DNA of 64,000 nt from the NCBI GenBank assembly GCA_034509735.1, contig JACGWO010000003.1, positions 35,300,466-35,364,465 on the forward strand, in the 5' to 3' direction. Below are positions 44,041 to 64,000 of this stretch, piece after piece (the first letter of the stretch is position 1; every line of letters starts with the position of its first letter). A model generated the notes under the pieces. It did not search any database. It was not told the origin of the DNA and saw nothing but the letters and a program-made list of their open reading frames with translations. Source of the stretch: Sesamum alatum (taxonomy: Eukaryota > Streptophyta > Magnoliopsida > Lamiales > Pedaliaceae). The position numbers were made by a program, and so were the translations under genes.

Positions 44041-44247
44041 AGTTACGTCAAGCGCACATCACTTTTTTGCTATAAGGAAGTCAATCGAGCAACTGACCAA
44101 CTAGCCAAAATGGCTGCAGCACAACCTTTTGCTTCTTTTGTGTTTAGTGAATGCGCGGTGTTTTTGAGTGACATTTTGTATCAATATCTGCACTTTATAC
44201 ATCAAAGAACTGTAACTAAATCATGTAATATTTTCTTATTGCAGTAG
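44041..44247 (+). pseudogene. RNase H-like fragment of a retroelement (reverse-transcriptase-like domain tail)
   Basis: The open frame ends at TAG 44245-44247 and reads CYKEVNRATDQLAKMAAAQP, then a hydrophobic tail. The E-N-x-A-D-x-L-A-K pattern is the C-terminal block of the RNase H domain found in LINE-type and RVT-like plant proteins. No upstream domain or start is present. Its last codons lie at the left boundary of the first duplicated segment. Confidence 0.5.
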
Positions 44248-44902
44248 TAAATAAATAAAAGTCTCCTTTTGTTCAAATACGTGTACACCTAATACGGCTA
44301 TTTATCATGGAACTTTTGCCAAAAAATATGACACTTTTTTTTTTTAAAAAAAAAAAGGAGAATACTTTCAACAAATATCAAAAAATGAAAATATTTGAAA
44401 AAAAATCGTACTCCCACAAGTAAATACATAGTTTCAAAGTTTATTACAAGATTTATATTGCATCTCGCACTTAAATTTATATATACGCAATCACGTCCAT
44501 TATTTTACAATTGTACGTATTATGTGTGTATAAAGTACAATATAAAATTATATTAAGAAATCGGGTCTACTAGTACTAATTTTGTGACATACTGCCATAA
44601 TTATAACAACGATCTGATCAAAGTATGTATCCTCATCATGACTAACCTTCTCACTATATATAAAAATCTATGTTTATTAATATAAACTAATAATGAATTA
44701 TTAATAAATAACTAACAAATAAGTACACAACAATATTATAGTTGAGATGACTTCAAACTTCAAAGTTCCGAGACATCAACCGTATCCCAAAACCACACAT
44801 TTTGATGTAAATCCAAATAATAAATAAATCACTGTTTACAACTCTGAACGAATGCTTGAGATTTGCAAGCTGCTCAGTTCCTAATTAATTTACTTTATTT
44901 AC

Positions 44903-46899
44903 TGTGACACCCCCTCCGTAATCACATTCTAGTTTATAAAGAATTCACATTTAATCCAATAAAATAATCTATATTTTAATCCATATATTATGTAATTGTG
45001 TAGTTAGGGTTTCCAACTTAAGATATCATTGTTGATCTACCTAATAATACTGATGATCGGCTTATGATCAGCTAACAATTGTGACTTATATCCTGAAAAA
45101 TACGCTGCAGTAATTGAGTTGCTTACTCAATAAGCATAACAAATCGACTTATATATATACACATACACATATGCAATAAGACAAATCTCATACAATTATA
45201 TCAATCCACAAATATTATTTAATATGCAATCACCACAAAATCATGAAATAACCAATACCACAATCATACATCAATCCACAGTATAATATATCCAGAATCA
45301 TCATATATTTTATTAGGGCCCTGCTTACCCAAGCTGAAGTGCATCACTCAATGGTTTTTGCCGGCCATCATCACCTCAATCATAATACCTCTTTTTTTTT
45401 CCTTGGTACCACACAACACACAACTCGTATGATATCCCATCATCCATCATATCACACAACACACAGCTCGTATGATATGTCACATCATCTCCACTAATCA
45501 ATGACAACACACAGCTCGTCGTTAATCATATTATCATAAGCCATTGCAGTATGCCCTCCAGTTAGGTAAGACATCTCTTTGTCTGAATTCACAATATTTT
45601 CATCAATAATCTCATCATTCATCCTCATTCAACAATCAAATCCCCCATCGATAGCTTAAACGTTCAATTTTATTAAACAATCAAACATAATACACATAAT
45701 CATCCATCTATGTTCCATACACTATAACCACATATAATCACATAATGACAACTTCATAGAATAACAAGTAATCCAGACAAATAGCCAACTATTTCCAACT
45801 GCGTATACAACACAAGAGTATATATCTACATATACATATAAATATATATAATTAATATATCAAAAATATCGTAAATTTCGAATACAATTACTAAATAATA
45901 TCCGTATATTTTTTATCAATATTTTAATATTTCCCTTATATTGAAACTTAAACCTCAGTTCATTCATTGTCTAAACAATTAGACATTATAAGCTTTCCCG
46001 ATATATATCTAATTTATCAATTAACTCATAAGAATCTATTTTATCAAACCCCTCACCTTTTTATAACAATCGTTCTCTATAACATTTCTAAATGAAATTA
46101 CTACAAATATCCCATATTTTCTTTTAATAAATATAATATTTGTCAAATACAATTTCCTAATATTTCTCAAATATAATTCTCTACTATTCCTACTAATTTC
46201 TTTGCCAATTCTTTACTATAATAATAATAATTATTTAAACACTAATATATACAATTATGTATTTAGTTAATAAACCCGATCAATTTGAATAGTCCATTAT
46301 AACAACTACTAAATCTAGTAGGTTATAAAATTTTAAGTTATTAGCTATAATATTCCAGTCCAATTAAATATACACCTGAACACTAATTTATATAAATACT
46401 TAAATTCAATAAATTTTCCGATTAACTAGTAAATCGAATAGTATAAAGCATATTTAATAATTACACTAACTAAATAATATAATCACATGGATTAATACAA
46501 AATTAAAACTTAAACTCACCTCTCATTTTTTTCTCCCGAGTGTGTGTTAATTGTGTGTGTGTTGAATTGTGTGTGTATTAATTGTAATTCCTTAATTAGG
46601 AAGTACATATATATATATATATAATATGTAAAATATGTGAGGCAAATATCATCATTTCTCTCTCTCTCTCTCTCCTTTTTTTTTTTACTTTTATTAAAAT
46701 TTTAATTTAATCCCCATCTTTGAATATATATATATATATATATATATATTAGCCATAAATATTTTATAAAGCTCCAATTTAATCCCTTCAAGTTTTTATA
46801 TATTACAATTTCAACCTATAACTTATAATTAAATTTATATTTCTTAATATAATTATCAATTAGCTCCTCGATTATAAATAAAATTATATGGACGTCACA
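44903..46899 (-). mobile_element. 1997-bp solo LTR-type insertion, absent from copy B
   Basis: The insertion starts TGTGACACCCCCTCCG and ends ATGGACGTCACA. It is flanked by TTTAC (44898-44902) and TTTAT (46900-46904), while copy B has an uninterrupted TTTATTGTG at the same place. TG/CA ends and a 5-bp target duplication indicate an LTR. Read on the minus strand it ends GGGGGTGTCACA, which resembles long chromovirus (Tekay/Del-like) LTRs; the lineage is an inference. Short direct repeats of ACACAACACACARCTCGTAT lie at 45411, 45454 and, in part, 45505. There is no coding sequence. Confidence 0.75.
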
Positions 46900-48059
46900 T
46901 TTATTGTGAGTTTGTCGAATATCTATAAATTTTCACAACAATACTAATAATCTACACTATATTATTAATGAAGAGGGTCCTTTTGATATTTAAATTAATT
47001 TAGTCTGTTATTTTTTTAATAAATTTAAATTAGTTAATTATTTTTAACTTTCCGATGATCTTTCATAATTATCTTTTTTCTTTTTCGTGCATTTTATCTT
47101 ATTTTAGAGAATTTTTAGCTTAAAAAAATAAATAATATAATTTATAAAAATATTTTATATTAAATATATAGTATTTGCCATGCTTACTAGTAATAAATAC
47201 TACTATTAATTGTCTTGACTCTTGGATTTGATTACGTGCATCATGACACCACTTTGTACCCATTTTTTTTTCTTAAAACAAAAAAAAAAAACACAAATTA
47301 TTATGTTTACTTTTACATTTTTATTTAGCACACTAGTTTTGCGAGCATATAGAAAATTTTTTTTGGTGTGAGATGAAGAGAAGAAAAAAATTGTGAATAA
47401 ATGGTAAAGAAAGAAGTTCGTGAGAAAAAAATAAACGTTGAAAGGAAGGAAAGAAACATAGAGTAGTAGGTTAAGAGAAAAACAAAAATTGTAATTATAA
47501 AATTATTTAAAAATATCAAAATTACTATTCTGATCGATTTTTTAAGAGAATATATGAATTAAAGAGTAATTTCGTGTATTCAAATATAGGTACAAGAAAA
47601 GACTTTCTTTTATAATAAATAATATAGATAATTATCTTTGCACTCCCAGACATATGACTTGTTTATATATATCACTATTGTCTTTTGAATAATTACACAT
47701 ACACTTATTAGAAATATTAATATTATTTACACATGTCAACATCATTATACAAACTATCTATATTACTGTTGTGGATAATTTTTGCAATTATATAAAAAAC
47801 AAGTGTATAAACGATAACACAAGTTACAAGATGTAAATATAATTATCCCTTTGTAATAATAACATTACTTTGGAGTTGAGTTTGGTGAATCATTACTCTA
47901 CAATCCCCCCATCTCCTCGTTTATCTCAAACCACTTCATAAATATTAAGTTTTATATTTGCGATCACGAATTTTAAACATTTAGAAATTCTTGCAATTTG
48001 ATATAAAACACTATCTTTTAAGTAATAATATGATAATAGCTGCCTGGATCGTTATTTTT

Positions 48060-61998: not shown

Positions 61999-62007
61999 TA
62001 TATAAAA
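61999..62007 (+). promoter_or_regulatory. Candidate TATA box of the second EIN2 copy
   Basis: TATATAAAA sits in the same context as 48912-48920, followed by CTCTCTACAGTGAACCAG. The core promoter of copy B is therefore preserved. Confidence 0.5.
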
Positions 62008-62088
62008 ATATTTTCTCTCTCTACAGTGAACCAGCTCACATACTTCTCAATCTCTCCACCTGTATCTCTACCCTTACTGCATCTATCA

Positions 62089-62115
62089 ATGGCTTCCGAG
62101 ACCTTCTCTAGTTGA
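62089..62115 (+). CDS. Upstream ORF MASETFSS in copy B leader
   Basis: All 27 bases are identical to the uORF at 49007-49033, while flanking bases differ (for example the sequence just before the ATG). Confidence 0.4.
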   Translation: MASETFSS

Positions 62116-64000
62116 GTTACTATATGTTAACGTCTGGCTTTCTTCGAGGGATCTGATCTGAACTCCGAGCACGCACGGCCGGGAAGAAACGCGAAAAGGT
62201 GTAGAAATATGTGAAGATTGAGTTAGTGAAGTGGAGATATGAATGACTTTAATGGTTTATGCATGCTTGTCAAAGCTTTGCGTTACGTACAGGTTTGATT
62301 GTGTATAAATGTGGATGTGTACGGTTTTGGTTTGTGTGTGTGTGGGTATACAGCTTTATTTCCTCTGCAGAGTGGTCATTGTTATCAGGTTCAGATCGTT
62401 GGCAGGCTGCTGAATTATTTCAACTTTATGATTAATAAGAGTAGTTCTGAGTTTCAAATCAATGGTGGGGATTTAGCCTTTGTTCGAGGGTTTTGAGATC
62501 AAACTTCAAAGGGTTTTATGTTTGAGGAATTAGGGCTTTGGGGTCTTCTATGTTGCTCATGCGATTTTCCAGTTTGATCGGTCTTGTTGCGAAGATCCGT
62601 TTGGTGTCAAGTATAGTATTGCTTGCTATTCCGTAAATTGTCAGTTTATTCCACAAATTGTCATTGATTAAATTGTTGATTTCCATTTGGGGATTTTTTT
62701 CTTTAGCCATCAGATTCCAGAACAGACACGCGTCGAAGCGTCGAGATAGGCCATTTTGTTTTTGCTGCTTAAACATGCAGACACATAATTGATAGTTGGT
62801 TTCTCGATTATTGAACTTGCGTTTGCAATTTGTTAGAGTTGCTCCTATTATAACCAAGATTGGTTTGATAATTATCTTGTTTAATTTAGGTTTTTCCTGA
62901 TACATAGTTTTAGGTGTGTATTTCTATTTGTGAGGTGGCCTTTGATGGCATGTTTCGTACATGAACTGATCATTTTAGGAAACATCTGTCAAGATAGCAT
63001 AAGATTCTACCTGGAGGGACGATCTTTGCTGTTCCTTCTTGTGGCTGTGATGGCTTCCAAAATGGAATAATCTTTTTATTTCCTTTGTTTGGTTTGCTTA
63101 ATGAACAGTTGAACTGAAATAAATATTAGCTTGTCACAAGTTTTTGACCCTTGTTTTATAATACAAAAAACATTTTAAACATAAAAATTGGTGAATAATA
63201 AGATAGGCTGATAGCATTAGTATGATTTTACTCAACGACATACATGAAGTTTTAAATGTATAATACAATATTAAGGTACTTAATACATATTACAGTATTT
63301 TGCATGAGTATATATATATATGAATGTGCCTATATTGTGTTTCTATATATTTATCTGAATATATTTATTGATTGTGCGAACGTATTTTATGTTTAATATA
63401 TCATTCATTATTTATAATATGTCTGCCATGAGATATATATGTATTAAGAATATAGATAAAATATTATTGAGTATATAAATGTATTTCTATATAGCATACA
63501 AATAATGTATCAAAGTTTATTGACAATATCTGCATAGGAGTATTTAATTATCTGAATATAGTATATGTAGGTTTTACACACGTGTACAAGCAGTGATTTA
63601 GTTAATGTTATCATAATTAAAGATTTGAGAGAAATTTAGAGGTAGCGATAGGACCTTCTTTAGCCATGATTACAAATGATTTCCACTTAATGGGGATTAC
63701 TCTCTCATGGTTGTAGAGGAATGAGTTTCCCCCCTTTTAGCTAGAATGTCTTATCCTTGTACACTTCAATCCCACTTTTCTTGTGTTGTTCCTACCAAAG
63801 AAGAAATGGGATTGAATTATTAAGTACGTGGGCTTTCGCTAAAATCCCGATACCCTCATACGAAACGTGTCATTAGTATTCTGTGGTTGGAGCTGAAATT
63901 CTTAAACCATCTTTTTGAAGAAAGCAATTATTCCTGATCCATTAAATGATATCTTCAAAGGCCCTGCACACTTGGAAGATTTGTGAAGTGTTTGGACCAG

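What the first reader, a model, noticed from the sequence alone, without database searches (positions are those of the whole stretch)
44223..64000. Tandem duplication of the EIN2 locus, with a second EIN2 expected just outside the window
The EIN2 5' flank, TATA box, uORF and leader (44223-50936) recur in the same orientation downstream of EIN2 (58586-64000) at roughly 95% identity, and the homology is unbroken at the window edge. EIN2 is single-copy in Arabidopsis and is a bottleneck of ethylene signalling, so a recent tandem pair with intact promoters would be notable for dosage or subfunctionalisation.
Basis: partly seen in the sequence, partly recalled or inferred. Interest (0 to 1): 0.85.

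Follow-up and report, generated by a model that had tools for sequence, protein, structure and literature searches.

The report
Tandem pair of intact EIN2 genes
A wild sesame carries two complete, side-by-side copies of the gene for the master relay of the plant hormone ethylene, plus a third on another contig; the side-by-side copies are nearly alike inside the gene but clearly different in their upstream regions.

Summary
Confirmed. The window is from Sesamum alatum. Its EIN2 gene (51655-57809, 7 coding exons, 1261 aa) is followed head-to-tail by a second EIN2 just beyond the window edge: ATG at window coordinate 64726 (reader predicted ~64719), 7 exons with conserved splice borders, 1262 aa, protein 95.9% identical. 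The unit is ~14 kb (44235-58544 and ~58600-72551). Ka/Ks 0.365 indicates constraint. A search of the assembly with exon 6 finds three EIN2 loci: the pair and an older paralogue (Ks 0.57) on another contig, also intact. The 3' edge is also more diverged, and 495 bp of exon 6 are identical although that stretch varies between species. I infer an older tandem duplication whose transcribed part was later homogenised by gene conversion, leaving diverged upstream regions (likely, not proven). Uncollapsed alleles are improbable; no reads were available. Duplicate EIN2 genes are known elsewhere: a new member of a known kind.

The parts
44235..58544 (+). Tandem unit, copy 1 (upstream region, leader, EIN2 gene, 3' flank)
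   Evidence: blastn of copy 1 against downstream DNA (44235-58541) and breakpoint alignment (to 58544)
58600..64000 (+). Tandem unit, copy 2, the part inside the window; it continues beyond the window to coordinate ~72551
   Evidence: copy 2 gene lies at 64726-71785 (window coordinates extended; C79:35365191-35372250), exons 64726-64974, 65504-65590, 65683-65793, 65878-66090, 68166-68351, 68445-71030, 71429-71785 (last coordinate counted from its own stop codon)
51655..51903 (+). EIN2 copy 1, coding exon 1
   Evidence: model gives 1261 aa, 100% identical to P0001, Ethylene-insensitive protein 2 [Sesamum alatum]
52433..52519 (+). EIN2 copy 1, coding exon 2
   Evidence: AG/GT borders
52612..52722 (+). 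EIN2 copy 1, coding exon 3
   Evidence: AG/GT borders
52807..53019 (+). EIN2 copy 1, coding exon 4
   Evidence: AG/GT borders
53170..53888 (+). Dispersed repeat inside intron 4, also present in copy 2 intron 4 (66349-66545 and 67271-67792)
   Evidence: 37 of the 43 listed matches are other places of this repeat (lower bound: 40 of 584 candidates scored); 43 mismatches in 711 pairs between the copies
54185..54370 (+). EIN2 copy 1, coding exon 5
   Evidence: AG/GT borders
54464..57037 (+). EIN2 copy 1, coding exon 6 (hydrophilic C-terminal part)
   Evidence: AG/GT borders
56333..56827 (+). 495-bp stretch identical in both copies, read as a recent gene-conversion tract
   Evidence: 0 of 5000 class-wise shuffles reach this run length; the same residues differ from S. 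angolense P0003 at 26 of the 148 that it covers
57444..57809 (+). EIN2 copy 1, coding exon 7 with stop
48912..48928 (+). TATA-like box of copy 1; copy 2 counterpart starts at 61999
   Evidence: identical 17-mer in both copies; function inferred
49007..49033 (+). Leader uORF MASETFSS of copy 1; identical peptide at 62089 in copy 2
   Evidence: that this is transcribed leader is inferred
48781..48781 (.). Change point of copy1/copy2 divergence: 13.6% mismatch upstream, 3.7% downstream
   Evidence: single change-point fit, 2dLL 254
44907..47195 (+). Sequence present only in copy 1 upstream region (~2.3 kb)
60468..61448 (+). Sequence present only in copy 2 upstream region (~1 kb); GGCTAAG / CTTAGCC near its ends suggest a small DNA transposon (inference)

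Best explanation
Sesamum alatum carries a head-to-tail tandem pair of complete, apparently functional EIN2 genes, made by one ~14-kb tandem duplication that took in the whole gene with ~7.4 kb of DNA upstream of the ATG and ~0.7 kb downstream of the stop (pair and extent shown; single event inferred). No long repeat is seen at the breakpoints, so the duplication probably arose by a non-homologous route (inferred). The duplication is older than the gene bodies look: the outer edges keep the original divergence, while the transcribed part has been homogenised by gene conversion between the neighbours (inferred). The result is two near-identical EIN2 proteins under upstream regions that have drifted apart in sequence and inserts. 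The likely consequence is extra EIN2 dose and/or divided expression of one protein (inferred, untested).
For: Second gene at window coordinate 64726, 97% DNA identity over the first 1510 bases. Seven exons, AG/GT borders, open to its own stop, 1262 aa, 95.9% identical to copy 1 over 1258 residues. Three exon-6 loci in the assembly, 3 of 3 candidates scored. No N in the window or the next 30 kb. Ka/Ks 0.365; 51 nonsynonymous vs 41 synonymous differences on 2904.8 vs 869.2 sites, Fisher p 3.9e-6. Conversion: change point at 48781, 2dLL 254; 3' edge from 58184 at 34 of 344 (9.9%) vs 3.5%, 2dLL 26.5; transversions alone 5.6% upstream vs 2.3% in downstream noncoding DNA, p 6e-12; the repeat inside intron 4, expected to be little constrained, differs by 6.0% against 13.6% upstream, p 1.5e-8 for all changes and p 0.002 for transversions alone; 495-bp identical run, 0 of 5000 shuffles, in a stretch that varies against S. 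angolense (122 of 148 residues alike).
Against: The upstream region may simply evolve faster; no other Sesamum genomic DNA was available to calibrate it, and searches asking whether the upstream segments and copy-specific inserts are dispersed repeats did not complete. The 3'-edge contrast rests on few sites (14 of 129, p 0.002). The shuffle test does not model regional constraint. The transition share is higher upstream (167:117) than in downstream noncoding DNA (135:137), which methylation-driven change could explain in part. No reads, transcripts or expression data were seen. Copy 2 changes its last residues (GPRKIAV to GPRR) by a 1-base deletion.
Confidence: 0.74

Rival explanations
1. A single recent tandem duplication with no conversion: the whole unit is of one age (Ks ~0.05), and the upstream and 3' edges diverged faster because they are unconstrained or methylated repeat-rich DNA, while introns and leader are held by selection.
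For: Leader, introns, intron-4 repeat and 3' flank lie at ~2-6% and coding DNA at 2.4%, near Ks 0.049; the transition share is higher upstream (167 ts: 117 tv) than in downstream noncoding DNA (135: 137), as methylation would give.
Against: Transversions are also 2.4-fold higher upstream; the intron-4 repeat differs by only 6.0%; the change fits a step at one point; long identical runs in exon 6 and the 3' flank.
Confidence: 0.22
2. Assembly artefact: the second copy is an uncollapsed allele or falsely duplicated sequence.
For: Reads and depth could not be checked.
Against: Edges differ by ~10-14% and each copy has its own kilobase-scale inserts, far beyond the allelic difference I would expect (recalled expectation); both copies lie head-to-tail in one 53-Mb contig without N in the stretch read; exon 6 has no fourth place on any contig of the assembly; two open genes with constrained differences.
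Confidence: 0.03
3. Copy 2 is a dying or already non-functional duplicate whose reading frame is still open by youth alone.
For: A 1-base deletion changes the last residues of copy 2; copy 2 carries extra insertions upstream and in intron 4, though copy 1 has a larger upstream one of its own.
Against: Ka/Ks 0.365 for the pair; polarised replacements are even: 18 assigned to copy 1, 20 to copy 2, 13 unassigned; TATA-like box, first uORF and coding splice borders kept.
Confidence: 0.12

Closest known systems
Two EIN2 paralogues of Lotus japonicus (EIN2A, EIN2B; passages of PMC11868565; chr5 and chr1 identifiers from a methods passage of PMC4358910)
   Same: Two EIN2 genes in one eudicot; the passages call the ein2a ein2b double mutant ethylene-insensitive, and the cited title says the two genes act cooperatively.
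   Different: The identifiers place them on different chromosomes, so not a tandem pair; in arrangement they resemble type A versus type B in Sesamum, not the tandem copies.
Two EIN2 copies of Utricularia vulgaris (PMC4358910, passages)
   Same: EIN2 duplication that its authors call relatively recent, and rare among angiosperms; pairwise Ka/Ks 0.41, close to 0.365 here.
   Different: Known from transcripts and partial genomic PCR; arrangement not given in the passages; a different genus.
Smallanthus sonchifolius L1987_34819 / L1987_34820
   Same: Consecutive locus tags on contigs of the same length, two EIN2-like proteins 99.2% identical: probably another tandem EIN2 pair.
   Different: Only annotation seen; could be an assembly duplicate; a different family (Asteraceae, recalled).
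Type B EIN2 of Sesamum (C85 locus here; P0012, P0125, P0126 in relatives)
   Same: Intact EIN2, seven exons, same genus.
   Different: Older (Ks 0.57-0.58), on another contig, separate clade in the tree.

Membership tests
EIN2 (ethylene-insensitive protein 2) | N-terminal Nramp membrane domain | tested here: met
   PF01566 E 5.6e-86, residues 38-391, copy 1; copy 2 was not scanned but aligns with copy 1 over 1258 residues at 95.9%
EIN2 (ethylene-insensitive protein 2) | Long hydrophilic C-terminal part ending in the conserved EIN2 block, with nuclear-localisation-like KRYKRR stretch (motif recalled) | tested here: met
   VLKRYKRRLSNK present in both copies and in type B (read from the translations)
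EIN2 (ethylene-insensitive protein 2) | Groups with EIN2 proteins of other plants | tested here: met
   best of 522 hits (120 listed) are named EIN2 proteins; ML tree of 28 EIN2 proteins places both copies within Sesamum type A
EIN2 (ethylene-insensitive protein 2) | Needed for ethylene response; cleaved C-end moves to the nucleus (recalled) | not testable with these tools
   needs genetics and cell biology
Tandem gene duplicate | Two adjacent same-strand copies in one contig, no gap | tested here: met
Tandem gene duplicate | Both copies have open reading frames with intact coding splice borders | tested here: met
Tandem gene duplicate | Copy number supported by reads | not testable with these tools
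   no reads held
Concerted evolution by gene conversion | Copies more alike than to orthologues, with patchy identity and older edges | tested here: inconclusive
   copies sister at 100/99; step at 48781 and 3' edge; identical tract; no calibration of the upstream rate from another species

The most novel reading that the evidence does not exclude
The tandem pair is old, perhaps as old as the split of S. alatum from the S. angolense group, and has been kept by selection for two EIN2 genes: gene conversion holds the proteins together while the promoters, shielded upstream of the conversion boundary, diverged to split expression of ethylene's bottleneck component.
Probability: 0.22. Interest if true: 0.62.

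Novelty: new member of a known kind. Interest (0 to 1): 0.45.

Why it matters
EIN2 is the step through which ethylene signals pass in Arabidopsis, where it is one gene (recalled; PMC4358910 says single copy in many species). A species with three intact EIN2 genes, two side by side with near-identical proteins and different upstream regions, allows a direct test of whether EIN2 dose limits ethylene response and whether upstream divergence alone splits its roles. It also bears on reading or editing EIN2 in sesame and its wild relatives: a catalogue that merges near-identical copies would miss one.

Tried and rejected
Considered and rejected: promoter-only duplicate without a gene (rejected); uncollapsed allele (see rivals); that the tandem partner is the older type B EIN2 (type B is on C85 and only 75-82% alike in the matched DNA pieces); that the two-member count of cluster P0001 proves copy 2 in the databases (not decisive, since a Sesamum orthologue could be the second member); that type A is generally truncated in the S. 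indicum group because P0003 and P0034 end early (not upheld: S. radiatum P0224 carries the C-terminal end). A search for shorter EIN2 proteins (query 465 aa) named no S. alatum fragment among its 103 hits; that fits a full-length copy 2 but shows nothing by itself. The first whole-region MAFFT alignment misplaced the distal 5' part; figures come from the anchored alignments. Literature: I saw listings only for (20 of 6,462 papers; 3 of 3; 20 of 87; 7 of 7; 15 of 19; 12 of 6,473) and, on conversion and promoter divergence, 54 (12 of 19); none of the listed titles and abstract starts describes a tandem EIN2 pair or the S. alatum genome. Passages of two papers were read. Not answered: whether the upstream segments and copy-specific inserts are dispersed repeats.
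Full report
Identity of the window. A seven-exon EIN2 model at 51655-57809 is 100% identical over 1261 aa to 'Ethylene-insensitive protein 2 [Sesamum alatum]' on a 53,283,286-base contig. The own-genome search places the window at G000:C79:35300466-35364465, + strand; one search gives C79 the same length, 53,283,286. S. alatum is Pedaliaceae, Lamiales.

The observation. Self-BLAST confirms collinear same-strand repeats from 44235/58600 to 50936/64000, unbroken at the window edge in the last block but interrupted upstream by copy-specific sequence of ~2.3 kb (copy 1) and ~1 kb (copy 2). 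A TATA-like 17-mer and the uORF peptide MASETFSS are identical in both copies. The leader block is 94.5% alike (2159 of 2285 pairs); the part upstream of 48781 is not ~95% but 86.4% alike (1810 of 2094).

The second gene. The next 30 kb were fetched (no N). Copy 2 has all seven exons with AG/GT borders, a net 12-base gain in exon 6, and a 1-base deletion that changes the very end (GPRKIAV to GPRR); it reads 1262 aa. The proteins are 95.9% identical over 1258 residues. Unit ends: copy 1 homology runs from 44235 to ~58544, copy 2 from ~58600 to ~72551; about 30-55 bases at the junction match neither end clearly, and the outer flanks give only a weak local alignment (score 31, not tested against chance), so no repeat-mediated origin is visible. 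Self-BLAST shows no further copy in 1-44 kb, nor does blastn in the ~21 kb after copy 2.

How many EIN2 genes. Exon 6 as query finds three loci in the assembly, 3 of 3 candidates scored: the tandem pair and C85:11337708-11340330. The C85 gene is also intact: seven exons, 1283 aa. Ks between C85 and the tandem copies is 0.57-0.58. In relatives, proteins of both lineages exist on contigs of different length, for example S. angolense P0003 (type A) and P0125 (type B). In the ML tree of 28 EIN2 proteins (four short Sesamum rows, P0122, P0129, P0136 and P0141, were left out before building) the tandem copies are sisters (100/99) within type A, beside S. angolense and S. angustifolium; type B is a separate clade. 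The resolution comes mainly from the C-terminal part: over its 318 residues the omitted S. latifolium P0122 is 97.2% identical to each copy, while the copies are 450 of 460 alike in their N-terminal part. The P0003 and P0034 gene models are imperfect (odd exon, early end), which inflates their distance. So the duplication, or at least the shared ancestry of the present gene bodies, lies on the S. alatum line after its split from the S. angolense group.

Are both working? Pairwise Ka/Ks is 0.365 (Ka 0.0178, Ks 0.0487) and the deficit of replacements is significant (p 3.9e-6). Of 51 residue differences in the alignment, 18 are assigned to copy 1, 20 to copy 2 and 13 to neither. This supports constraint on both but does not show expression.

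Age and conversion. Aligned mismatch is 13.6% (284/2094) upstream of 48781 and 3.7% downstream; a single change-point fit gives 2dLL 254. Downstream noncoding DNA is 272/5887 (4.6%), coding 90/3785 (2.4%), and the dispersed repeat inside intron 4 is 43/711 (6.0%). The 3' edge rises again: 34 of 344 from 58184 on (9.9% vs 3.5%, 2dLL 26.5), and 14 of 129 from 58401 on (p 0.002 vs body noncoding). Old edges with a younger middle are what gene conversion leaves. Within the body, 495 bases of exon 6 (56333-56827) are identical, which 0 of 5000 class-wise shuffles reach (largest 488), and the second-longest run, 316 bases in the 3' flank, is equalled by 1 of 5000. The exon-6 tract is not a conserved block: copy 1 differs there from S. 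angolense at 26 of the 148 residues covered (17.6%), more than in the preceding C-terminal part (49 of 445; p 0.045), while the two copies differ at 0 of 165 in the tract against 35 of 445 before it (p 1.6e-5). Against this reading: the upstream rate has no outside calibration, the upstream excess is partly transitions (167:117), the shuffles ignore regional constraint, and the check whether the upstream segments are dispersed repeats did not complete. With a recalled rate near 7e-9 per site and year, the body would be ~3.5 million years old and the upstream edge ~10 million; these are rough.

What it means. Shown: a complete tandem EIN2 pair plus a third EIN2 elsewhere. Inferred: duplication of ~14 kb by a route without long flanking repeats, later conversion of the transcribed part, and upstream regions that now differ in sequence and inserts. 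Predicted: higher EIN2 dose or divided expression. The bold case, that the duplication is about as old as the split from the S. angolense group, rests on the upstream divergence (K2P 0.148 for 44235-48284) being three times Ks, while copy 1 differs from P0003 at 10.4% of residues against 4.1% from copy 2.

Prior knowledge. Duplicate EIN2 genes are known: Lotus japonicus EIN2A/EIN2B (PMC11868565, passages) and Utricularia vulgaris, where the authors call EIN2 duplication rare among angiosperms (PMC4358910, passages). In the third protein search (120 of 129 hits listed), Smallanthus sonchifolius L1987_34819 and L1987_34820, with consecutive tags, are 99.2% identical EIN2-like proteins, probably another tandem pair. 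In the open-access library the listings that I saw held no paper on the S. alatum pair (mostly the top of long lists).

Noticed in passing
G000:C85:11337008-11342342 (minus strand; L012, L013): A third, older EIN2 (type B) is intact in S. alatum: 7 exons, 1283 aa, Ks 0.57-0.58 to the tandem copies.
   Followed up: yes
window 53170-53888: Intron 4 of both EIN2 copies holds a dispersed repeat found at 37 or more other places of the assembly at 81-88% identity (only 40 of 584 candidates scored). Copy 2 intron 4 has a further ~0.7 kb insert (66546-67270).
   Followed up: partly
proteins P0260 and P0261 (Smallanthus sonchifolius): Consecutive locus tags L1987_34819/34820, 99.2% identical EIN2-like proteins: a probable independent tandem EIN2 pair or an assembly duplicate.
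   Followed up: partly
proteins P0003 (S. angolense) and P0034 (S. angustifolium): Type A EIN2 models of these relatives end early, near residue 1050 of copy 1, without exon 7; S. radiatum P0224 has the end. Annotation error or local truncation not resolved.
   Followed up: partly
window 7982-8452: Minus-strand ORF with ribosomal protein L11 domains (PF00298, PF03946).
   Followed up: no
window 11772-12335: Plus-strand ORF with senescence regulator domain (PF04520).
   Followed up: no
window 34609-35088: Minus-strand ORF with a partial RNA recognition motif match just below the cut-off (PF00076, 20.2 against 20.7 bits).
   Followed up: no
window 101-955 and 13211-14047: Probable transposon remnants: weak gypsy-type match (PF04195, 23.8 against a cut-off of 26.2 bits) and an ORF that looks like a Copia-type polyprotein end (recalled resemblance; no Pfam hit).
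   Followed up: no
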